A stretch of 50,435 bases of DNA from Rhodospirillaceae bacterium (GTDB taxonomy: Bacteria; Pseudomonadota; Alphaproteobacteria; Thalassobaculales; Thalassobaculaceae): the NCBI GenBank assembly GCA_002722775.1, contig PBMU01000104.1, positions 1-50,435 on the forward strand, written 5' to 3'. Made by a program: the position numbers and the translations under genes. The notes below the pieces were generated by a model. It was given only the letters and a program-made list of their open reading frames with translations. It was not told where the DNA came from and did not search any database. Shown here one piece after another: positions 15,406-50,425 of the stretch (its first letter is position 1; the number at the start of each line of letters is the position of its first letter).

Positions 15406-15477
15406 GGTCCGCGATCTTGGGCTGACCCGCACAGCCAAATTGCGTTAGGCTTGCGGTGCAACCTACTGACGCGGCAT

Positions 15478-17085
15478 ATGAACGAAATATTTGCGTACGC
15501 GACCGGCGAAGGTTTCAGCATGCTGGAGTCGGGAAGATTCGAGGAAGCTCGCAGTGCGTTTAAAAAAGCCTGCATAGACCGACCCGGGAATTCTTTGGTT
15601 TGGTACGGCATGGGATTCGCCCAGGTTCGGGCTGGCCTGCTTGACAATCCGTCGATACCTCTTGCTCGGGCAGTGGTAGCAGCTAATCGGATGACTGCAA
15701 TCCGAGTCATATCGGAAACTCACCTAACAATCGGGCTTCTATACCGGCGTGCCGGGGATCACGCTGCGGGCCGGGACGCATATAGGCGAGCGCTGCTGGC
15801 CGAACCGTCCAACGCTCAGGCTTGGAACAATCTCGCGAATCTTTACACTGACAACTCAAAAACCTCTCTTGCTGTGGCAGCGGCCTGGCGAGCGGTACGC
15901 GCCAAACCGGATTACGCCGCGGGTTGGAACAACCTCACACGGTTACTCACGGATCAGGGCCGTTTAAGCGAAACTGTCGGCCCCCAGCGGCGGTGTCTGG
16001 TCGTCACCCCGGGTGATAGGCATGGCTGGATCAACTTCGCCATCGTGGCCAAACGCCAAAACCACTTAAATAACGCAGTCAACGGATTTGGACGTGCCGT
16101 GCTGGTGGACCCGGAAGATAGTGAAGCTCGGATGAATCTAGGTCGCAACTTGTTATTGACTGGAGATCTGGAGAAGGGTTGGTGCACGTTGGAACATGAC
16201 TGGCGCCGTCAAGGTTTTCCGCCGATGAACCGGGGTTTTTCTCTGCCAGTTTGGGATGGTGGGGCCGTGCATGGAGGACGACTGCTAGTCTGGTGCGAGG
16301 AGAAGATCGGTGAGGAGATCATGTTCGCCTCGATGTTGCCTGACGTCTATGCGCTCGCGGGCAGCCTACTTTTTCTAAGCAGTCCCCGGGTCCACCAGCT
16401 CTTTGCACGGTCGTTTCCTTATCTCGATATTATCGCCTGGGATGGGGCGGGTAGGCCACCGGCGGACCTTTCGGATGTCCGCTGCTGCTATCCACTAGAA
16501 TACGTTGGACGCCACTTGCGTCGCCAATTCAAGGAATTTCCTAAACCCCGGGCTTACCTCAGACCTTCCACGAGCATGTCGTTGGGCGCCATGTCACGCG
16601 GGCTCCTTCGCGTCGGGCTATCTTGGCATAGTACTAATCCGTTGGTAGGGATCCACCAGTCGCTGGCATTAGAGCAACTCGGCCCAATTCTTCGTATCGA
16701 GGGTGCGCGCTTTGTCGATCTGCAATATGGCAACACTAATGTGGAACGCGGGATTGCCGAGGATTGTTTTGGCGTTACCATCGATCGACCGGATAGTGTC
16801 GATCAAATTGCGGACATCGAAGGGTTCGCCGATTTCGTCGCCGGCCTGGATCTTGTGATTAGTATCTCGAACACTACGGTCCACGTCGCAGGGGCCCTTG
16901 GTGTTGAGACCTGGGTCATGCTGCCCAAGGGGCCGGGTTTACCTTGGGTCTGGTTCGAGGACCACGATGTGGCGCTCTGGTATCCAAGAACCAAGCTCTT
17001 TCGCCAAGAAACTCCCGGAGATTGGCGCCCCGTGATTGATGAGGTAGCTAAGGATCTGCGCCGGTTTGTAGCGGCTAGCGATTAA
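15478..17085 (+). CDS. TPR protein with C-terminal glycosyltransferase-like (GT9-type) domain
   Basis: About 535 residues from ATG 15478; the ORF also allows TTG 15451. The N-terminal half is tetratricopeptide repeats (for example GFSMLESGRFEEARSAFKKA, RAGDHAAGRDAYRRALLAEP, NAQAWNNLANLYTDN). The C-terminal half has the pattern of GT-B proteins often fused to TPRs: LLVWCEEKIGEEIMFASMLP, LRVGLSWHSTNP, and a nucleotide-sugar-binding-like GLDLVISISNTTVHVAGALG. Such proteins are assumed to add sugars to proteins or surface glycans, but the substrate is unknown. Its last four bases overlap the end of convergent chrA. A decayed protein of the same layout lies at 18557-20310. Confidence 0.82.
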   Translation: MNEIFAYATGEGFSMLESGRFEEARSAFKKACIDRPGNSLVWYGMGFAQVRAGLLDNPSIPLARAVVAANRMTAIRVISETHLTIGLLYRRAGDHAAGRDAYRRALLAEPSNAQAWNNLANLYTDNSKTSLAVAAAWRAVRAKPDYAAGWNNLTRLLTDQGRLSETVGPQRRCLVVTPGDRHGWINFAIVAKRQNHLNNAVNGFGRAVLVDPEDSEARMNLGRNLLLTGDLEKGWCTLEHDWRRQGFPPMNRGFSLPVWDGGAVHGGRLLVWCEEKIGEEIMFASMLPDVYALAGSLLFLSSPRVHQLFARSFPYLDIIAWDGAGRPPADLSDVRCCYPLEYVGRHLRRQFKEFPKPRAYLRPSTSMSLGAMSRGLLRVGLSWHSTNPLVGIHQSLALEQLGPILRIEGARFVDLQYGNTNVERGIAEDCFGVTIDRPDSVDQIADIEGFADFVAGLDLVISISNTTVHVAGALGVETWVMLPKGPGLPWVWFEDHDVALWYPRTKLFRQETPGDWRPVIDEVAKDLRRFVAASD

Positions 17086-18556: not shown

Positions 18557-20310
18557 CTATGAGGAAAATTGGATCCGATCGGCCCATTCCCGGTATTTCT
18601 CTGAGGCGCGCCGCAGTGCCTCGGTTCGGTCGAATGCACAGTCTATATCCCGGCACGGGAAAACGTTCTTGAAAAAGGCATCTCGCCCACTGGTTAGTGT
18701 CATGTAACTCGCTTCCAGTCGGATCGTGGGAATGCCACTCGCGGCTGCCACTGTGCAGATTGAGGTATCCACCGTGACCACAATGTCAAGACAAGCGATC
18801 AGCGCTGCGAGGCGTTCCAAATCGTCGCGTTGGCGATTGCTCGCAGAATCAGCTCGGGCGAGAAATAGAACTCCGAACGGTGGGTGGTGACTAGACCCGA
18901 TCGCCAGCACAGACCAACCATCAGACCGTCCCCCAGCCCGTTTAGCGAATCTTGGCACCGGGAAATCTCGTTCGCCTCCGGAAGGAGGTAGCTACCCTAC
19001 AACGCAGGACGGGCAAGACCGACTCCCAATAGGCCGGGAAGGCTACCGGACAGTAAATGCGCAGAAGGGCCCCTCTCGGCGACCAGGTAATGGTAGTTCC
19101 AGGCGCAACAACCCCAACCAGTCTCGGTAGTTGTGCGGGCGACGAATTGCGAGGCTGGAAAGCTTCGCTGGGACAGCGCAACGTTGCGAGTATCACATTC
19201 GACAATTACATCGGGGACCGTGTGGAGAAGATCTGGAAGGCAGCTTAAGAAAATGAACTCGTCTCCGACACCTTGTTCAGAACAGACTAGAACTGGTCCG
19301 CTGGGTGGGGCGCCTCGATCCCAAGCTGGTGGCGGACCATCTGGTAGGCCGGCTCGTCTCTCGCAGAGAGACCAACCCCGAGCTGTATCACCGATCGCGA
19401 AAGCGCTTTCGGACGCGACGATGGCCACCGAATCAAGCGCATCGTCGATCATTAGCGCGCGCAGTCTGGCATTACGGGACAATGCGTATCGTGAAATTCG
19501 TATCGCACAACTTGTGAAGTTGATGTGGCCCGGCAACTTTTCTGGAGCAAGAAGGACTGCGCGAACCGCGGCTTGTTTCCCAGAGGTCGTTCAAGCGTGA
19601 GGCGAGCAACCTCCAAAAAGCGATCGTCTAGCGGCGTGATGCATAGCGCGCGACGCAACGAATTGTGCGGCCTTTCACTACAACTAAGACGAACATAGGC
19701 CTCGGACATGGTGGGTTGGAGGACGGCTACCCGCAAGGAAGCGCATTCCGCTTGGTTGACAAGGCCAAGGTCGGGTAAAGCCCGAGCCTGTTCTATATGA
19801 AATCGGGCATCAATTGGCGACGATGAGCTGCACCGATCAAGAACTGCGACCGCGTCTTCCGTGCGTGTTGAGTAGCGCAATACCAAGGACAGGACTCGTC
19901 CGGCGTCTGGATTGCCGGATGTTTTTTCGAACGCTATTCGCGCAGGTTTCTCAGCTCCTTGGTGTCGACCGGCCCGAAGCAAAGCCTGAGCTATGTTGAG
20001 GGCTGGTTACAGCATGTTAGGTTGCGCTTACAACGCTGCTTGGAAAAACTTAATCGCTTCCGCATCCTCTTTCAGCGCCAGAAGGCAGGCGCCTAGATGG
20101 TTTTGGAATCCGGGGAGTCGGGTTTTGCTTTTACGGCCCGACGACGCAGTTCGACGGCCTAGGTGATACGCCCGGATTGGTGCAATGGAACGCCCATGAG
20201 GTCAAGGGTCTCGGGGTGATCCGGAACGATGCCGAGAATTTGCCGGTATTGGGCCAAGCTTCACTGAGGCGTTCAGCATCATGCAGCGCAAACCCATTTT
20301 AGAGGACTTT
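18557..20310 (-). pseudogene. Decayed TPR-glycosyltransferase gene
   Basis: Reading the minus strand downward, pieces of one protein appear in three frames. Around 20200-20300: FALHDAERLSEA, then AQYRQILGIVPDHPETLDLM and, across a TAG, AVELRRRAVKAKPDSPD. After a frameshift: FQNHLGACLLALKEDAEAIK, which are classic TPRs. ORF 19452..19982 continues TPR-like. ORF 18997..19536 has WDRGAPPSGPVLVCSEQGVGDE and FIFLSCLPDLL, matching the glycosyltransferase start in the intact gene at 15478-17085. Near 18870-18920 another frame gives GLCWRSGLVTTHRSEFYFS. ORF 18557..18958 ends with AALIACLDIVVTVDTSIC. Several stops and frameshifts make this a true pseudogene about 1.75 kb long. The edges are approximate, and the upstream end may reach further. 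Confidence 0.8.
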
Positions 20311-21003: not shown

Positions 21004-21525
21004 TCACGGCTGTCGTGTGGATTCGGAGAAATGATCCAAGCCAAAATCGCTCGGCTCCGCGGTGTATTCTAGTATGCGACGTTTCCAATCCAGGTTTGAA
21101 TTCCGAGAAACCAACTCTGCGAGTATAGCCTTAGACTCACTGATTTTTCCCTGGGCCCAAAGGATTCGCGCCAGAAGGAAAAGGTCTTCGCCTAACCCTC
21201 TACCCCCGCGAAAAGCTGCACGAATGGCGATCTCTGACTCGGCGAACTGGCCGACTGCGTAAAGTGCCTCGGATAACCTTACTTTCACCAAAACATCAGA
21301 AGGGTCCACCATGGATGCACGCCTTAGGAGGGCGAGCGCTGTTTCGGGTAGCCCCAGGGGCGCGAAACACATTCCACATAGCATAAGGGATCGGGCCGAT
21401 TCTGGTGTTGCAACCGCAACCGCCTGGGCATGGTTAAGAGCATCAGGCCGTTTGCCTTTCATGGCCTGTTGAGCCGCCTCCCAGTGGTCATGGACGAAAG
21501 TGTCAAGCATGGTGGGGGCGGTCAT
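21004..21525 (-). CDS. Small TPR protein coupled to a surface-carbohydrate gene
   Basis: 173 residues from ATG 21525, chosen because this ATG overlaps the TGA stop of the upstream gene (ATGA), the classic sign of translational coupling; the ORF track start at 21561 lies deeper inside that gene. Repeats are visible: PESARSLMLCGMCFAPLGLP, ETALALLRRASMVDPSDVLV, AEALYAVGQFAESE-like and LLARILWAQGKISESKAILA, about four TPR units. There is no signal peptide, so it is probably cytoplasmic. TPRs mediate protein contacts; coupling suggests it partners the product of 21522-22838. Confidence 0.78.
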   Translation of the reverse strand: MTAPTMLDTFVHDHWEAAQQAMKGKRPDALNHAQAVAVATPESARSLMLCGMCFAPLGLPETALALLRRASMVDPSDVLVKVRLSEALYAVGQFAESEIAIRAAFRGGRGLGEDLFLLARILWAQGKISESKAILAELVSRNSNLDWKRRILEYTAEPSDFGLDHFSESTRQP

Positions 21526-22838
21526 GACATATGTGTCCGAGTTATGTTCGTTACATGCCACACTGCAGGACCTAGGTCGGTGATTGAAAAATTCTGGCTT
21601 GACCTAGTTTTAGTGGCCTCTCGAAGTAACGCCCGAAAAGTTTCCGTCGAGACGAATGCCTTGTCGCGTTGGCGTGATGAGTTGTACGGGTTTGTGAAGG
21701 GACCGGGTTCCAGCGCGCGGGCGCTTCCGATAGGCATGATGTCCAACACAGAATCGACGATTAACTCAGACGGCGAACTGTCCATCTCTGTCTGGAGATA
21801 GGGCTGTAGCGCCTTTATCCGATCTTGTGGGGTCGAGGTAATGGTAGGTCGTTGGTAAATTTGTTCAACAAATTCCAATGCTTGGCGCGCAGTTTCAGCA
21901 TTTTTGTTTACGATCGACGAAACGAATCTATCGTGCCAGGCTGATTTGCCTGGCCGGAGGTTGATTGCTTCACGCCCGAGCAAGCACGCCTCGAGCCCTG
22001 TAGTTGATCCGCTGTGGACCAATACGGAGCAGGACAACGTCCAGTACAAATGGTCATTGTCGGAAACTATGTACACTGACGACAGATCCCGGGCCATGTC
22101 GATCCAAGGCCTTGGGTTCTCAGATGGGTGGGGCCGCAGGATTACGGGAATGTCGGGCCGGAATTCCGAAATCATATTCAGAAATCGGACAATCTCGCGC
22201 AGATTGTCTCGCTCCCAAACACACTGTGTGTGAAAAAGTTCCATCTCGTCGGGATCACCGGGAGCCAGCACACCCACACCCACGCAGCGACGGTAGTAGG
22301 CGAACGCATCGAAATCGAATGGATTGATGGACGCATAGTTTGTGTTAACCAATACATACGGGCCATAGCGGCTCAGAAACTCCTGCGCCGGACCCGTAAT
22401 GCCTGAGCTTGCGGCGGAAATCAGGGCTTCCGATCTGGGATTTCCAACAATGCTAACCCTGTCCCACATTTCTGGAAACCGCGAGATAAGTGTGTCTCTT
22501 TGATTTATTCCCTGCGCTAGAAAGCGGTCGCAATTCGTTTCAATCCTCGGATCGAATAAAGTTAGGAACACGTCTTCGCCCTTGAGACCGAAAGCCTCCT
22601 CCTCGATCGAAAGAACTCGGTGGCCCGCCGCGCGTGCACTTGTCATCAGGTTTGCCTGGACCGAGTTATTCCCTTTCAGGAAAACGACGCCGGGTGACAA
22701 ACTAGCGAAGTTCCTGGCGAACCACCATTGCTGTCCGATGACGACTTCGAGGTTTCGCGCTAGGGCAGCGGTCGTGATGTGGGCACGCGCCCGAAGTTCC
22801 CGGAACGACTCCTCGACCAGTATGTAAAGCTTGCTCAT
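21522..22838 (-). CDS. Surface carbohydrate biosynthesis protein (GT-B-like)
   Basis: 438 residues. It resembles proteins annotated as surface carbohydrate biosynthesis, distantly like CDP-glycerol glycerophosphotransferases. Supporting segments are MSKLYILVEESFRELRARAH, GHRVLSIEEEAFGL, IPVILRPHPSENPRPW and SCSVLVHSGSTTGLEACLLG, the last like the nucleotide-binding loop of GT-B enzymes. The acceptor and donor cannot be told. ATG 22838 has AGAGGA about 13 bases upstream. It is the first gene of a two-gene unit with the TPR protein. The Gly-Asn-Pro-Arg-Ser segment in the middle (SIVGNPRSEALI) also matches this group. Confidence 0.75.
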   Translation of the reverse strand: MSKLYILVEESFRELRARAHITTAALARNLEVVIGQQWWFARNFASLSPGVVFLKGNNSVQANLMTSARAAGHRVLSIEEEAFGLKGEDVFLTLFDPRIETNCDRFLAQGINQRDTLISRFPEMWDRVSIVGNPRSEALISAASSGITGPAQEFLSRYGPYVLVNTNYASINPFDFDAFAYYRRCVGVGVLAPGDPDEMELFHTQCVWERDNLREIVRFLNMISEFRPDIPVILRPHPSENPRPWIDMARDLSSVYIVSDNDHLYWTLSCSVLVHSGSTTGLEACLLGREAINLRPGKSAWHDRFVSSIVNKNAETARQALEFVEQIYQRPTITSTPQDRIKALQPYLQTEMDSSPSELIVDSVLDIMPIGSARALEPGPFTNPYNSSRQRDKAFVSTETFRALLREATKTRSSQNFSITDLGPAVWHVTNITRTHMS

Positions 22839-30408: not shown

Positions 30409-32463
30409 TTATTTCTCGCACCATGTGCGCCACATGCGTCGATAGGCCACCTCAACAGCGCTCGCGTATTTGTCAGGGTTTCCAGCTTCACTTTGGCGAA
30501 CCTCGTCCCTCAACGTACCACGGATGGACCTTAGTGCCTTGCGATCATTGGCCAGCTTAACGGCTAAGCCGATATATTCCCCAACGTCATTAGCGATCCA
30601 TTCCCGTCGGCCAATCGCACCTAAAATGGATCCTGCGACGCGTGAAGGTTGGCTGTGCCCTAGCATGCAAACCACGGGGACCCCCATCCATAGAGCCTCG
30701 AGCGTAGTCACCCCACCACCGAAGGGGAAGGAGTCAAGGGCGACGTCTATCGCGCCGTATGTGGCGAGATGGGCGGCACGAGGCGTCGCGCCAAGGAATA
30801 CGAGGCGGTGGGCGGAGATGCCATTGGTTTCGAATTTCCTTTGGAAACGCCTTCGGATGGTGTGGTCCGACAGGGACCGGTCCTTGAACATGAGGCGAGA
30901 TTCGGTAACTTCATTCAGTATACAAGCACAGCAATCCAGCATGTCATTGGTGACCTTGCTAATGCGGTTCATGCAACCAAAAGTAATCCAACCATTCATG
31001 TCAGCGGGCGGTGGTAGGATGTCTGTCGCGTTTGGCGGTGCTTCAAGCCCGATTTGGCAGGGTAGGTCAATGACCTGTTCGCCGACAAAACTTCTAGCGT
31101 CAGCCGGTATTCCGATAGGATCGTTGAACAAATAGTCGATCCAGGATGCCCCCGTTCCGGACGCAAGGCCCCATGCTGTCACCTGGATAGGTGCAGGTCT
31201 AGCCGCGAAGACCGTCATACGATTGCCACCAAGAAACCCGGAGAGGTCCACCAGGATGTCGATCTGGTCTTTTTGAATCTTTTCCACTAATCCTGCGTCG
31301 GATAATGCGTGTACGTCCGCCCAATGATCGGCGGCTGCGCGGAATGCGCGGGTGTACCGGTCCCCTGAGATCACCCCGGAATAGCAATAGATTTCAAAAA
31401 ATTCCTTGTTGTGGTTCTTGACTGCGGGTCCGAAACAGAATGCTGCTGACTGTTCACGAAAATCGGGAGAGACGTAACCGATCCGGAGGCGTCGCTCCGG
31501 GTTCCGATCGTTGCAGAAGCGTCTTTTGGGAACTGCAAGCGCGCGGCCCCATCGTCTGTCGAACGTCGATCGCAAGTTGCCGTGGTGCTCGAACGTCAAA
31601 TCGCTGAGGAATTCGGAAATAAGGATCCGGTGGGTGGCCGGTATAGGGTTTGCAGGATCGAGAAGCTGCGAGCGTTTGAGGCTTGAGAGCGCATCACCGT
31701 GCATCTGTGAGGCAGCAAAGGTGTTTGAAAGCATGATCCATGTCCCGGATTGGGCTGGTTGGATGCAGGTTGCGTGAAGTGTTGCAAGGCGTGCCTTGTC
31801 CGTCTCACCTAGATTGGTCGATAGTAGGCCGAGATGAAGCCAAGCTTCGGAAACATCGGGCGCCAGGACCAGTGCTCGCCAAAGACAGCGCCGGCTGAGA
31901 TTGCCGCGACCGAAGTCACACCAAAATTTACCGAGCCGTATCCAATTGTTCGCGTCGTTTGGCTGGATCGCCCCAGCTCGTCGATGAAGCCGTGCATGGG
32001 ATTCACACGGGCGCTCCCTTGCTAGATGGTTCGCAAGAACCGACCAGGCTGCCGCATGTCCTGGGGACAGCACGACAGCCCTTCTTGCTGAAGGCCGACG
32101 GCCTTCTAGGTTCTGGGATTGGTCTAGGGCCAGCGCGAAATTAAAATGCGCCGCGTGTGAGGCTGGAGATGCGATGCGGCCCCGATTCAAGCAACACAAA
32201 GCAAAGGTCTTTTCATTTGCGTGCTTTGTGAGAATACCGTGATTGATCCAGGCATCTGCCGATGCCGGCAAGACCGTTAACGCCTCGCGGTACATTCGGC
32301 GCATATTTGGCCTATCCCGCTGGTCTGGACCATGGATTGTGGCCAGGGCTTCAAGAAAGTACCGAGCGGCGGCAACGGGATTTCCTTGTGAGTGAAAAGC
32401 GACAACGCGGGAAAGAAGATAGAGAAAGGGCGAAGACGGTGTTGTCGTTTGTTCAACGTTCAT
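30409..32463 (-). CDS. TPR protein with SPINDLY/OGT-type glycosyltransferase domain (GT41)
   Basis: 684 residues from ATG 32463 (TTG 32502 is possible). The N-terminal half contains degenerate TPRs (ADAWINHGILTKHANEKTFA, SEAWLHLGLLSTNLGETDKA). The C-terminal half is a GT41 domain: RLRIGYVSPDFREQSAAFCF, ILVDLSGFLGGNRMTVFAAR, PAPIQVTAWGLASGTGASWI, ITFGCMNRISKVTNDMLDCC and VALDSFPFGGGVTTLEALWM, then GVPVVCMLGHSQPSRVAGSI. In eukaryotic OGT this domain moves N-acetylglucosamine to Ser/Thr; bacterial relatives are linked to protein or surface glycosylation. Acceptor unknown. It stands alone. Confidence 0.92.
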   Translation of the reverse strand: MNVEQTTTPSSPFLYLLSRVVAFHSQGNPVAAARYFLEALATIHGPDQRDRPNMRRMYREALTVLPASADAWINHGILTKHANEKTFALCCLNRGRIASPASHAAHFNFALALDQSQNLEGRRPSARRAVVLSPGHAAAWSVLANHLARERPCESHARLHRRAGAIQPNDANNWIRLGKFWCDFGRGNLSRRCLWRALVLAPDVSEAWLHLGLLSTNLGETDKARLATLHATCIQPAQSGTWIMLSNTFAASQMHGDALSSLKRSQLLDPANPIPATHRILISEFLSDLTFEHHGNLRSTFDRRWGRALAVPKRRFCNDRNPERRLRIGYVSPDFREQSAAFCFGPAVKNHNKEFFEIYCYSGVISGDRYTRAFRAAADHWADVHALSDAGLVEKIQKDQIDILVDLSGFLGGNRMTVFAARPAPIQVTAWGLASGTGASWIDYLFNDPIGIPADARSFVGEQVIDLPCQIGLEAPPNATDILPPPADMNGWITFGCMNRISKVTNDMLDCCACILNEVTESRLMFKDRSLSDHTIRRRFQRKFETNGISAHRLVFLGATPRAAHLATYGAIDVALDSFPFGGGVTTLEALWMGVPVVCMLGHSQPSRVAGSILGAIGRREWIANDVGEYIGLAVKLANDRKALRSIRGTLRDEVRQSEAGNPDKYASAVEVAYRRMWRTWCEK

Positions 32464-33051
32464 GGTGGCCGCCGAGCGTCTTGGTGATATCAACGCAACC
32501 AAGTCTAGTAGTGACCCAAGCGTATCTACAAGAATTCGCTTAAGCTACTTTGCTCGACTTGTTGACTGTTGTTGGGAATGCATAGGGGGCAGATCATTAA
32601 AGTACATACTCGGTGCTCGTCCTCATAATTTTACCGTGGTCGAAGTTTTCATTATCTTTCTTACTAAATCCATCTTACCTCGAATCATTCGCTTTAAATC
32701 TGACGTTTCGGTGCAGGGCTCCTCAGAGAAATTCGCGAATTCGCTCCCCAAAAAAGGCCTTGTCAAAGATAGTGAGCACGCATAGCGATTGGTTGTCGGG
32801 TTTTCGCTTCGTCTTGAAAAAGGGTCTTGAGTTGGGTTTTCAATTGGATCGCAGACCGATTTGAGGCATTTCAGGGCTCGTTTCCGCTAGAAGTCTTTAT
32901 CATCCATCGCAACCCCAATCGGCAGTAGCTTTAAGAGACAAGGTTTCTGGTATATATTGGGTCAGATGTTAATCCAATCTTGACGATGCCTCGAACAGCC
33001 TTGCGCGTTCAAGTATGTGTGAGCGTTTGGAAAACAACAGAAAACTCTGCA
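32464..33051. promoter_or_regulatory. Divergent upstream region of the GT41 and RND genes
   Basis: About 590 bp between outward-facing genes, AT-rich around 32610-32700 and 32940-32960. It must contain the promoters of both. I could not identify a confident -35/-10 pair, operator or regulator gene. No coding relic was recognised. Confidence 0.3.
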
Positions 33052-45845: not shown

Positions 45846-47000
45846 CTAAACCCGCTGTTCATTGGCTAATTCGAGCTCCAAAGCATCGAAGAAGGTGTCG
45901 ACGTCTTTGATATCGTTGAACAGATAGGGACTAACTCGGATCGCTCCAGCACGCAGACTCACGTACACTTTTCGGTCTGCGAGACGGCTCACGAGCCCCT
46001 GGGATAAGGGTTGCTTTGGCCAAAGGCCGATGAAATGACCAACTCTGCAGTTTACTGGCGGCACCCAAAACGCCATCGCCTCCGCCTGCGCGGCGATCCG
46101 ATCCGTCAAGCGACGCAAGCTGTCCTGTATCGCGTGAACCCGCCAGTTTTGGATCTGTGTCAGCGCTGTCTTACTCATCGGAAGGTGAATCATACTGTCA
46201 GCCGCACCCATGTCGAACCGTTTGGCCCCCGATACGTACTCGTCGGAGTAACCGGATGAGATTTCCATCGACGGCGCATTGTCGCGCCCTTGGTGGTTGT
46301 TCTCCAGAGGTTCGCCGTCTTGGCGATGTGGCGCCACATACATAAAGCCCATCATGTCGGGGCAGAGCAGCCATTTGTACGCTGAGACGATAAGATAGTC
46401 GGGCTGGATCGTTTTGACATCCGTGGGCAGGGCCCCGACCGATTGGGTGGCGTCGACTATTAAAGGCACGTTGAGTTCTCGACACCGCGCGCCGATCACG
46501 ACGAGGTCAAGGTAGGAACCATCGGTCCAGTGGCAATTAGGCAGCGCGACCAGCCCTGTCTTCGGACCAAGAATTTCAAGCACAGCGGCGGTCCAGTCGA
46601 AATCGGAGGGGCGAAGCACCACGCGAAGAAGGGCATCGTCGCGGCCAGCAACCTTCTGCCAGGCGTAGTAGTTAGACGGAAACTGGCAGTCCAGAAGTAC
46701 GATTTCCTGGCCGCGTGGAACCGAAAGGTTTTTCGCCGCGATGGCAACGGCATAGCTGGTGGAAAATGTGATAGCTATGTCGGAAGCGGTCGCTCCCACC
46801 ATGCTTCCGAACAGATTCCGGCACTCTTCCATTTCTGTGGCCACGTAGGCCCGGTCCGGATCCCAGGGATTAGCTTTGCGCGCCACACCTCGTCGGCCGG
46901 CCGCGGCACTTTCCAGTAAGCATGGCGACTGGGCGGCGCAATTTAGGTAGACGAGATCGTCAGGAATATCGAAAAGATGCTTCTGATTTTCGAGAATCAT
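45846..47000 (-). CDS. Class V aminotransferase family protein (PLP-dependent)
   Basis: 384 residues. The PLP lysine is in LIVSAYKWLLCPDMMGFMYV; the aspartate and cofactor-contacting segment is PLIVDATQSVGALPTDVKTI. The N-terminus NCAAQSPCLLESAAAGRRGV and the substrate-site GYSDEYVSGAKRFDMGAADS fit the isopenicillin-N-epimerase / cysteine-desulfurase-like subgroup; no nearby NifU-like gene suggests iron-sulfur work. ATG 47000 has GAGGCGG just upstream. The reaction (transamination, desulfuration or epimerisation) cannot be told by eye. It reads away from the HTTM pair. Confidence 0.9.
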   Translation of the reverse strand: MILENQKHLFDIPDDLVYLNCAAQSPCLLESAAAGRRGVARKANPWDPDRAYVATEMEECRNLFGSMVGATASDIAITFSTSYAVAIAAKNLSVPRGQEIVLLDCQFPSNYYAWQKVAGRDDALLRVVLRPSDFDWTAAVLEILGPKTGLVALPNCHWTDGSYLDLVVIGARCRELNVPLIVDATQSVGALPTDVKTIQPDYLIVSAYKWLLCPDMMGFMYVAPHRQDGEPLENNHQGRDNAPSMEISSGYSDEYVSGAKRFDMGAADSMIHLPMSKTALTQIQNWRVHAIQDSLRRLTDRIAAQAEAMAFWVPPVNCRVGHFIGLWPKQPLSQGLVSRLADRKVYVSLRAGAIRVSPYLFNDIKDVDTFFDALELELANEQRV

Positions 47001-47622: not shown

Positions 47623-48066
47623 ATGTTAAACTTGATTAAACTGTTATTACCGGCTTTGTTTCCATCCTGGCGATTCTTTGATGTAATCGCGCCGTCCCCG
47701 CGAGTTGAACACGTTCTTATCGACGATCCTAAGGATGAGGGTGAGAACTGGCAGGAAAGCCGCCCGACACCCCAGTACATCGTTCCGCTGGACTGTTTTA
47801 AAGCGTTTTTCTGGAACGCAGGGTGGAATGAAACGCTTTACATGTCTACTTGTGCAGAGCGGCTGGTCCAGAACCCAATGGAGTTGAACCGGCGGGAAAT
47901 CCGGCGACGCATCCGGGCGGGCCTACTGCGCAAAAATGGCGATCACGCAACGCCTAGATATTTTCGGTTCCGGTTGATTTTTGTCAGTCGTCAAGGAGGT
48001 ATGCTGCGGCGCGACATCGCGTTTGTTTCCCCGGCATATCTGTGTATCGATCCACTCGACCAATGA
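47623..48066 (+). CDS. Unknown protein coupled to the HTTM-like gene
   Basis: 147 residues; I do not recognise the family. It starts with a short hydrophobic stretch MLNLIKLLLPALFPSWRFFD, too short to be a sure membrane anchor, followed by a soluble domain with IAPSPRVEHVLIDD, PLDCFKAFFWNAGWNETLYM, a basic RREIRRRIRAGLL and a C-terminal RYFRFRLIFVSRQGG. The stop TGA overlaps the ATG of the next gene (ATGA), so the two proteins are made together. HTTM genes are known beside small thiol-disulfide oxidoreductases of the DCC type, but this protein lacks the DCC motif. A role as partner or substrate adaptor of the membrane protein is inference. Confidence 0.7.
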   Translation: MLNLIKLLLPALFPSWRFFDVIAPSPRVEHVLIDDPKDEGENWQESRPTPQYIVPLDCFKAFFWNAGWNETLYMSTCAERLVQNPMELNRREIRRRIRAGLLRKNGDHATPRYFRFRLIFVSRQGGMLRRDIAFVSPAYLCIDPLDQ

Positions 48067-48758
48067 GTGTAGAAGCCGCCATCAGGTTGACAGAAATCCT
48101 ACTGTCGATCGCGCTGATCCAACAGAGCCTGGAGCATATCTTTGGTTTACCTGATGAGCGCGGCCATTATCTAGTTCGCTTGTTCCTAGCCGCGCTGCTT
48201 ATCTCAGGCATCCAGTCGCAATGGGTTTGCGTCGCCCTATTTGTTAATGCTCTGTTCATCCTTAAACGTTTCCAGGGGCCCTATAATGGCGGTAGCGACC
48301 TATTGAGCCTTTTAATGATTTTTTGCTTGAGCCTCGCTCACATGATGCCAAGCTCATTATGGCAAGAATATGTGTTCGGTTATCTAGCGCTTCAGGTGAC
48401 TTTCTCCTATTTCAAGTCTGGCTGGTCAAAGGTGATTCAGAGGGACTGGCGCAGTGGACGCGCACTCGAAGACGTCTTCGCATTCTCGGCCTATCCGGCA
48501 AGCGAGGTCATTCGGACTTGGGCAGCGTGGCCAAGGCTTTTGTGCGCTATGTCGTGGGCTGTGATTCTGTTCGAGTTGCTATTTCCATTGGCATTTATCA
48601 CACGGTCCGCGTTAATCGCGGGCCTAACCATTGCGCTGTCGTTCCATGTTGCCAATTTTTATCTTTTCGGATTTAACCGGTTCGTCTGGGTCTGGGTTGC
48701 GGCTTTCCCATCCCTTTTGTGGCTGCAGGCTCGGTTAAATCCACTAGCCTGGATCTAG
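48063..48758 (+). CDS. HTTM-like integral membrane protein
   Basis: 231 residues from ATG 48063 (start overlapping the stop of the previous gene); the ORF track start at 48042 is rejected. About six hydrophobic segments are visible, for example LTEILLSIALIQQSLEHIFG, LFLAALLISGIQSQWVCVAL and LIAGLTIALSFHVANFYLFG. The central VTFSYFKSGWSKVIQRDWRS with the later GRALEDVFAF is the pattern of HTTM (horizontally transferred transmembrane, vitamin K gamma-carboxylase-like) proteins: a tyrosine-rich helix, then SK-DWR-G. No C-terminal soluble carboxylase domain is present. Function unknown. Confidence 0.75.
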   Translation: MSVEAAIRLTEILLSIALIQQSLEHIFGLPDERGHYLVRLFLAALLISGIQSQWVCVALFVNALFILKRFQGPYNGGSDLLSLLMIFCLSLAHMMPSSLWQEYVFGYLALQVTFSYFKSGWSKVIQRDWRSGRALEDVFAFSAYPASEVIRTWAAWPRLLCAMSWAVILFELLFPLAFITRSALIAGLTIALSFHVANFYLFGFNRFVWVWVAAFPSLLWLQARLNPLAWI

Positions 48759-48826: not shown

Positions 48827-50026
48827 TTAGGAGAAGTTTGCCATAGCTGCTGGAAATTCGATAATTTCAACACCTGGTGGTGGCGCGAGTGGCAGAGTGA
48901 ACTCCTCCGGGAAAGACGACACCAAAGGTGGCCCCGGCAAACGCCAACCTTGTACATCTGCTGTGCGTTCGAATATCTCGTTAGCAGCGGCGCAAAGTTC
49001 CGCCAAGCTATTGCGCACGAAGTGAAAACCATACCGTGCTATGACCTTTTTTACTGCCAATGTTGAGTATAGTCCTTTGGCGACGGCAACATCGCGTGGA
49101 ACGCGTTGGCCCTGCGGGCCGACAATGTGTTGCATCATCGCGAAGCTTGGTTTTTCAAGCGGGCCTAGTGTGGATAGCGCATTACATCGCGCCATTGGTA
49201 CGCCGAATGCGGAGGCGAACCCAACCGGTCCAGAGGGTGTGAGTTCCAGAAAATATCTGGCCCGGCTGACCGCGTATGCGTGCAGTAAGACGCTTTCGTT
49301 CTCACCGCTGATATCCACGAAACCAGGTCTCGCAGGGATCGGTGTCATTCCCGGGTGACCAATTCGCACAACTTGGCCATCTTGTTGTTGGATGATATGG
49401 TCGATGATTGCTTCGGGATTTTCGGCTTTTAGATCTCGATCAATTTGAGCGTCAGAATCTCGATATCCCGCTTCTCTATAGTGCAAGACGCAGAACCAAC
49501 GGTGTTTATTCACACCCGCCCGCAACAATTGTTCATGCAATGGTCCAGCCCGGCCCGACGGCACTGCAAAACGGGCGAAAGGGGCCAACCCGCGCAAACC
49601 ATCAAAATCCATAATCGACGGGGTCAGTACTAAATCCGGTTCGGCCGACAAGGAATGGAACCAGAATTTGTCGCGAGGCCGAACCGGTCGTCCACCCATG
49701 TAGTCGAAATAGTCTATTGGAATACCGTTTGAACCTTCTGACTTCCATGCCCAGGAAATGTAGGGATTCAATTCAATAATTGGATCCTTATAAGGCCGGT
49801 CTGGCCGGTAGTAGACGATCAACCTAGAATTCCGAAACCTAAGTCGAACAGTGGCCGCAAACAGATTACGGTAAATGAAATCACCTAGCGTGCGGTCTAA
49901 TAGCATCGCGAAAATGGTAAACGGTCTATTGGTTAGAAGAACCCTTTTGCGGGGGTCGTATTCCAGAGACTGGTAGTTTTTTGTGTCTTTAAGACCACGC
50001 AAATCCGGCAAATCTTCTGGATTCAT
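48827..50026 (-). CDS. TIGR04372-like putative glycosyltransferase
   Basis: 399 residues. It resembles proteins annotated as TIGR04372 family glycosyltransferases: RWFCVLHYREAGYRDSDAQI, a helix EAIIDHIIQQQDGQVVRIGH, then PGFVDISGENESVLLHAYAV, RARYFLELTPSGPVGFASAF and GVPMARCNALSTLGP. The arrangement (lone VLHYR-x-D, G-x-V-R-G, SG-S-G nucleotide-like loop) is of a GT-B type. The N-terminal third (TNRPFTIFAMLLDRTLGDFI) is distinctive. It is assumed to act on surface glycans. It converges with the HTTM-like gene, stops about 70 bases apart. Confidence 0.72.
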   Translation of the reverse strand: MNPEDLPDLRGLKDTKNYQSLEYDPRKRVLLTNRPFTIFAMLLDRTLGDFIYRNLFAATVRLRFRNSRLIVYYRPDRPYKDPIIELNPYISWAWKSEGSNGIPIDYFDYMGGRPVRPRDKFWFHSLSAEPDLVLTPSIMDFDGLRGLAPFARFAVPSGRAGPLHEQLLRAGVNKHRWFCVLHYREAGYRDSDAQIDRDLKAENPEAIIDHIIQQQDGQVVRIGHPGMTPIPARPGFVDISGENESVLLHAYAVSRARYFLELTPSGPVGFASAFGVPMARCNALSTLGPLEKPSFAMMQHIVGPQGQRVPRDVAVAKGLYSTLAVKKVIARYGFHFVRNSLAELCAAANEIFERTADVQGWRLPGPPLVSSFPEEFTLPLAPPPGVEIIEFPAAMANFS

Positions 50027-50348: not shown

Positions 50349-50425
50349 TGGTCGGGGAGAGAGGATTCGAACCTCCGGCCCCTGCCTCCCGAAGACAGTG
50401 CTCTACCAGGCTGAGCTACTCCCCG
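50349..50425 (-). tRNA. tRNA-Pro (anticodon CGG)
   Basis: The minus strand reads CGGGGAGTAGCTCAGCCTGG onward. The acceptor stem CGGGGAG pairs with CTCCCCG; the T-loop GGTTCGAATCC is complete. The anticodon stem CTGTC/GGCAG (one T-G pair) encloses the loop TTCGGGA, giving anticodon CGG for proline. The 3' CCA is encoded in the genome (50349-50351). No terminator is immediately downstream. Confidence 0.96.

What the first reader, a model, noticed from the sequence alone, without database searches (positions are those of the whole stretch)
47623..48758. Two-gene unit: unknown protein coupled to an HTTM-like membrane protein
The 147-residue protein has no recognisable family and its stop overlaps the start of a six-helix protein with the HTTM pattern but no carboxylase domain. 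Known HTTM partners (DCC thiol-disulfide proteins) do not match. This is my best candidate for an undescribed system in the window.
Basis: inference. Interest (0 to 1): 0.6.

Follow-up and report, generated by a model that had tools for sequence, protein, structure and literature searches.

The report
Orphan LinL–HTTM membrane enzyme pair
Two overlapping genes encode a small membrane-associated protein and a membrane protein built like the core of the vitamin-K carboxylase; they are distant relatives of the pair thought to dehydrate linaridin antibiotic peptides, but here stand alone in Gram-negative bacteria with no antibiotic cluster, so they may modify an unknown protein.

Summary
A 147-aa ORF (47623-48066) overlaps by ATGA the start of a 231-aa HTTM protein (48063-48758; Pfam HTTM 29.2 bits, cut-off 27.7). 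No Pfam, NCBIfam or PDB search recognises the 147-aa protein. The two genes are strictly linked: in the window's family, all 12 genomes with the small gene have HTTM directly after it, and the only other HTTM in 36 genomes is a full-length GGCX-like one. The pair recurs in other Alpha- and Gammaproteobacteria and in 32/192 Bdellovibrionota genomes (HTTM follows in all 20 loci inspected). Profile-profile comparison links the small protein over its full length to LinL-type proteins of linaridin clusters (98.4%, score 94; shuffled maximum 19.5), and its HTTM partner groups with linaridin HTTMs. The HTTM model matches the GGCX membrane core and keeps the lysine aligned with base K218, but not the Glu-binding Asn-His. 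Unlike linaridin clusters, the window has no alpha/beta hydrolase, precursor, methyltransferase or transporter beside the pair. Best reading: an orphan Gram-negative branch of the LinL-HTTM enzyme, modifying an unlinked polypeptide. Pairing and kinship are shown; complex, substrate and reaction are inferred. New variant of a known kind.

The parts
47623..48066 (+). 147-aa LinL-like partner protein (U147)
   Evidence: conserved family; full-length profile match to linaridin LinL-type proteins; AF2 model pLDDT 76
47659..47682 (+). codons of the FPSWRFFD motif (residues 13-20), invariant in the 19 sequences of alignment A2
   Evidence: P14, W16, F18 in 37/37 sequences once Bdellovibrionota are added; same place as 'P-N-W-R-F-F-A-P' in LinL-type proteins
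48063..48066 (+). ATGA stop-start overlap (likely translational coupling)
   Evidence: same 4-nt overlap in 11 of 16 loci
48063..48758 (+). 231-aa HTTM membrane protein (GGCX-like membrane core, linaridin-type subfamily)
48285..48299 (+). codons of N-G-G-S-D (residues 75-79), which takes the place of the Asn-His motif of GGCX-type enzymes
48429..48431 (+). codon of Lys123, aligned with the GGCX catalytic base K218; present in all 37 HTTM proteins compared
   Evidence: K218 role from PMC12589487

Best explanation
The two genes encode the two subunits of one membrane enzyme that modifies a polypeptide at the membrane face. The HTTM subunit is the catalytic bundle: the membrane core of the vitamin-K carboxylase fold, keeping its base lysine (K123, equal to K218) but with the Glu-binding Asn-His motif replaced by Gly-Ser-Asp, as in linaridin HTTM proteins. 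The 147-aa protein is a LinL-type accessory subunit that sits on or in the membrane by its N-terminal hydrophobic helix and invariant FPSWRFFD segment and completes the active site or holds the substrate. By analogy with linaridins, where LinL plus the HTTM protein are the suspected Ser/Thr dehydratase (and LinL a proposed epimerase), the most likely reaction is alpha-carbon deprotonation leading to dehydration or epimerisation of a residue in a substrate encoded elsewhere. Shown here: strict gene pairing, homology of both subunits to the linaridin pair, GGCX-like fold and conserved lysine. Inferred: physical complex, cofactor, substrate and reaction.
For: Gene pairing: 12/12 genomes of the family, HTTM directly 3' of U147, only one other HTTM in the 24 genomes without U147 (Fisher 1e-8); 15/15 loci of genome contigs, Paroceanicella plasmid, three further Pseudomonadota and 20/20 inspected Bdellovibrionota loci (in L088 the HTTM gene is cut by the contig end). 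Partner homology: U147 family vs LinL-type family hhalign 97.4%, 98.4% with the larger family, score 94 vs maximum 19.5 in 60 column shuffles, over the full length. The LinL-type group comes from linaridin-type clusters: precursors with the PxxxTP cleavage motif, HTTM fused or adjacent to alpha/beta hydrolase, methyltransferase, ABC transporter (motif and LinL marker role from PMC9927463). HTTM tree: this pair, Bdellovibrionota pairs, linaridin, Rhodococcus and Haloplanus HTTMs on one side of a 97/95 branch, GGCX-like and DUF5819-linked on the other. HTTM model: the first 14 PDB fold matches are all GGCX, TM-score up to 0.71; K123 aligns with K218, the base whose K218A mutation abolishes catalysis (PMC12589487).
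Against: No alpha/beta hydrolase, PxxxTP precursor or transporter lies next to the window pair and no small ORF is conserved beside the pair, so the linaridin reaction may not carry over. The dehydratase role of LinL/LinH is itself only suspected in the papers read. U147 has no PDB fold match. No complex could be modelled (the tool takes one chain). No named LinL sequence was compared directly; the LinL-type group was identified by cluster content.
Confidence: 0.55

Rival explanations
1. An SdpA-SdpB-like unit: the two proteins mature a secreted peptide toxin or bacteriocin, as SdpA and SdpB (an HTTM-type protein) do for SdpC in Bacillus.
For: SdpA/SdpB are both essential for active SDP (PMC5719810); 10 of 17 HTTM orthologues hit TIGR04033 SdpB weakly, best 5.6e-6; same architecture of small protein plus HTTM.
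Against: No match to SdpA PF17418 in any orthologue or in the own genome; SdpB scores were not seen near the curated cut-off of 178 bits; no conserved small ORF or SdpC-like gene beside the pair. No SdpA sequence could be fetched for a profile-profile test.
Confidence: 0.15
2. A split vitamin-K-type carboxylase: U147 supplies in trans the domain that follows the membrane bundle in GGCX (a segment 'SWDM' there resembles 'SWRFF').
For: By eye the order SW-R-M, strand, helix, strand is similar; HTTM fold and base lysine conserved.
Against: Profile comparison with the C-terminal part of six bacterial GGCX homologues is at chance (score 11.7, shuffled maximum 15.4); no GGCX among the listed matches of the U147 fold search; the Glu-binding Asn-His motif is absent.
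Confidence: 0.08
3. A redox unit: the HTTM protein passes electrons between quinone and thiols (DoxX/MauE/VKOR-like) and U147 is its docking partner.
For: Three HTTM orthologues have weak DoxX hits (best E 0.08); GGCX binds a quinol in the same fold.
Against: No conserved cysteine pair in either protein; no DCC or thioredoxin-like gene beside the window pair.
Confidence: 0.1
4. A conserved membrane unit with no enzymatic activity (for example envelope assembly or a receptor).
For: No substrate or conserved neighbour found.
Against: Invariant polar and charged residues within the bundle (E24, D79, K123, E171, H195, R206) match an active-site pattern.
Confidence: 0.1

Closest known systems
LinL + LinG/LinH of linaridin clusters (CypL/CypH, GrmL, CrdL/CrdG)
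   Same: Both subunits homologous; W-x-F-F motif then strand, W, N/F-P helix and F-x-F...S at the C-end in the small protein; GSD, SYxxxGxxK, WRxGxAL and FHxxNxxxxGxxRF motifs in HTTM.
   Different: No alpha/beta hydrolase fused or adjacent, no precursor, methyltransferase or ABC transporter beside the window pair; Gram-negative hosts; conserved stand-alone pair.
GGCX / vitamin-K-dependent gamma-carboxylase
   Same: HTTM membrane fold (TM-score 0.71) and base lysine.
   Different: No C-terminal propeptide-binding or carboxylase domain, no Asn-His Glu-binding motif; separate partner subunit not detectably homologous to the GGCX domain.
DUF5819 + HTTM pairs (B. subtilis plasmid CP123774, Streptomyces NZ_CP107997)
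   Same: Membrane-anchored small protein with W-x-V-F-A-P-x-P, overlapping a following HTTM gene.
   Different: Direct profile comparison at chance; HTTM in another part of the tree. The LinL-type Kocuria protein just reaches the DUF5819 cut-off.
SdpA-SdpB of Bacillus
   Same: Two-gene unit of a small protein and an HTTM-type protein.
   Different: No SdpA match; no SdpC-like gene.

Membership tests
HTTM domain (PF05090) | score over Pfam gathering cut-off | tested here: met
   29.2 vs 27.7 bits; 17/17 orthologues match
LinL (linaridin partner protein) | sequence homology over full length | tested here: met
   hhalign 98.4%, score 94, shuffled max 19.5, against LinL-type proteins identified by cluster content
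LinL (linaridin partner protein) | encoded with a linaridin-type HTTM protein | tested here: met
Linaridin cluster | alpha/beta hydrolase (LinE or C-terminal half of LinH) | tested here: not met
   HTTM protein is 231 aa without it; window neighbours are a class V aminotransferase and a TIGR04372 glycosyltransferase; not among the commonest neighbour families of the relatives (25 of 68 shown)
Linaridin cluster | precursor peptide with PxxxTP cleavage motif | tested here: not met
   none near the window pair; found in the reference linaridin loci L048, L049, L051-L054
Linaridin cluster | dehydrated peptide product | not testable with these tools
   needs mass spectrometry
GGCX carboxylase | base lysine K218 | tested here: met
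   K123 aligned, conserved in 37/37 HTTM proteins
GGCX carboxylase | Asn-His motif binding the substrate Glu | tested here: not met
   replaced by G-S-D
GGCX carboxylase | C-terminal carboxylase/propeptide-binding domain | tested here: not met
   protein ends after the bundle; U147 not homologous by profile
SdpA/SdpB | match to PF17418 / TIGR04033 cut-off and an SdpC precursor | tested here: not met
DUF5819 | match to PF19136 | tested here: not met
   no hit in any orthologue at E<=10; profile comparison at chance

The most novel reading that the evidence does not exclude
LinL-HTTM is a general protein- or envelope-modifying enzyme of Gram-negative bacteria (including Bdellovibrionota), installing dehydro- or D-residues on cellular or secreted proteins outside any RiPP cluster, and linaridin biosynthesis is one specialised offshoot of it.
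Probability: 0.3. Interest if true: 0.8.

Novelty: new variant of a known kind. Interest (0 to 1): 0.52.

Why it matters
LinL was described as associated only with linaridin biosynthesis and is used as the marker gene of those clusters (PMC9927463). A stand-alone LinL-HTTM pair, strictly co-inherited across two Gram-negative phyla, separates the core two-subunit enzyme from its antibiotic context. It gives a minimal system in which the suspected linaridin dehydratase, whose mechanism is unclear, could be studied without hydrolase, methyltransferase or transporter. It also warns that LinL alone should not be used to call linaridin clusters. The shared base lysine suggests related chemistry across GGCX, linaridin enzymes and this pair.

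Tried and rejected
Pfam, NCBIfam and PDB searches of U147 and its orthologues: nothing. Viral contigs: no relative. SdpA family model in 200 Pseudomonadota genomes: no match over cut-off. Idea that U147 is the GGCX post-membrane domain in trans: not supported at sequence level. Direct homology to DUF5819: not supported. Fold search of the U147 model: no significant match, best E 0.64. Search for an adjacent conserved small peptide or PxxxTP precursor: none; the only small matches shared with the window fall on the downstream tRNA-Pro gene. The linaridin papers PMC7680433 and PMC2941285 are not held.

Full report
What is there. The window lies in an alphaproteobacterial draft genome of 2.57 Mb whose nearest relatives with the pair include Nisaea and Thalassobaculum. 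At 47623-48066 (+) is a 147-aa ORF whose stop overlaps (ATGA) the ATG of a 231-aa ORF ending at 48758. The second is an HTTM protein (29.2 bits, cut-off 27.7). The first has no family in Pfam or NCBIfam, nor do 18 orthologues, nor the PDB. Flanks on the opposite strand are a class V PLP aminotransferase (45846-47000) and a TIGR04372 glycosyltransferase (48827-50026); neither is conserved beside the pair elsewhere.

The unit is real and strictly paired. A genome-contig scan gave 15 loci with a homologue; in all of them an HTTM gene follows on the same strand, with the same 4-nt overlap in 11 of 16 loci checked, window included, and -11 to +3 in the rest. In the window's family 12 of 36 genomes have the small gene; exactly these 12 have the HTTM gene directly after it, and the single other HTTM gene (G018) is a full-length GGCX-like protein (Fisher 1e-8). 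HTTM genes are rare in the phylum (4 of 299 genomes), so the pairing is not background. Outside the family 3 of about 397 Pseudomonadota genomes have it, again with HTTM. In Bdellovibrionota 32 of 192 genomes have it, with HTTM following in all 20 inspected loci, one of them cut by the contig end. In the window, Thalassobaculum (L018) and Nisaea (L022, L023) the pair lies near a tRNA-Pro(CGG) gene, which fits vertical inheritance.

What the small protein is. Its core is FPSWRFFD (residues 13-20), invariant in the 19 first-aligned members; with the Bdellovibrionota added, P14, W16, F18 and W43 are in 37/37 sequences and N65, N69, F116 in 35/37. A tblastn search with the HTTM protein over plasmids led to other HTTM genes, most of which have a small neighbour with a P-x-W-x-F-F-A-P-like motif. 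Most are in linaridin-type clusters of Actinomycetota: precursors with PxxxTP, an HTTM protein fused or adjacent to an alpha/beta hydrolase, then a ~180-aa protein, then methyltransferase and ABC transporter. The ~180-aa protein has the position and context of LinL, the marker protein of linaridin clusters (PMC9927463). Profile-profile comparison joins the U147 family to it over the full length: 97.4% with the first set, 98.4% and score 94 with Bdellovibrionota added; 60 column-shuffled controls reach at most 19.5.

What the HTTM protein is. A profile of 17 orthologues picks only GGCX in the PDB, weakly (E about 0.1). The AF2 model (pLDDT 89, pTM 0.85) gives GGCX as its first 14 fold matches, TM-score up to 0.71. 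Invariant K123 aligns with GGCX K218, the base that deprotonates vitamin K hydroquinone and whose mutation abolishes catalysis (PMC12589487), and is present in all 37 HTTM proteins aligned. The Asn-His motif that binds Glu in GGCX is present in bacterial GGCX homologues but is G-S-D in this family and in the linaridin HTTMs. In a maximum-likelihood tree this family, the Bdellovibrionota pairs, linaridin, Rhodococcus and Haloplanus HTTMs form one side of a 97/95 branch; GGCX-like and DUF5819-linked proteins form the other. Both subunits therefore point to the same relative.

How it probably works. In linaridins the HTTM protein with LinL (plus the hydrolase) is suspected to dehydrate Thr/Ser (PMC9927463; PMC7794033), and GrmL has been proposed as an epimerase (PMC10373908). 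Both are alpha-proton chemistries, fitting a retained membrane-embedded base lysine. I propose a two-subunit membrane enzyme: HTTM as catalytic bundle, U147 as the LinL-type subunit that docks by its N-terminal helix and FPSWRFFD segment. The substrate is not linked: no conserved small ORF, no PxxxTP peptide beside the window pair, no hydrolase. Family relation and pairing are shown; complex, cofactor, substrate and reaction are inferred.

What was ruled out or left open. Homology of U147 to the GGCX domain after the membrane bundle looked attractive by eye but is at chance in profile comparison. DUF5819 is not directly supported, SdpA does not match, and no PDB fold resembles the U147 model, which is only moderately confident (pLDDT 76). 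No named LinL or SdpA sequence was available for direct comparison. Verdict: a confirmed, conserved orphan LinL-HTTM pair, a new variant of a known kind, of moderate interest.

Noticed in passing
L041:2461-4423 (B. subtilis plasmid CP123774) and L046:1611-3519 (Streptomyces NZ_CP107997): DUF5819 protein directly followed by an overlapping HTTM gene in two phyla: DUF5819 looks like another HTTM partner family (W-x-V-F-A-P-x-P motif); no paper in the library mentions DUF5819.
   Followed up: partly
L042:3028-4438 (Haloplanus plasmid, archaeon): A 198-aa protein with IPQYNFFAPE overlaps an HTTM gene, with a SagB-type dehydrogenase, methyltransferase and M28 peptidase nearby: a possible archaeal relative of the LinL-HTTM pair.
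   Followed up: partly
L062:855-2184 (G114): A 146-aa protein with WLRSWTMF overlaps the start of an HTTM gene in another alphaproteobacterium: possibly one more partner type; profile comparison with U147 was at chance.
   Followed up: partly
L055:2464-3929 (Hymenobacter plasmid): A 168-aa protein without the W-x-F-F-A-P motif directly precedes an HTTM gene.
   Followed up: no
window 50349-50425: tRNA-Pro(CGG) near the pair; a tRNA-Pro(CGG) also lies beside the pair in L018, L022 and L023, so the pair seems to sit at a stable chromosomal place in this family.
   Followed up: yes
window 18997-19982: Two overlapping minus-strand ORFs in different frames (18997-19536, 19452-19982) look like pieces of one TPR/glycosyltransferase-like gene; other TPR-rich genes lie at 15451-17085, 21004-21561 and 30409-32502.
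   Followed up: no
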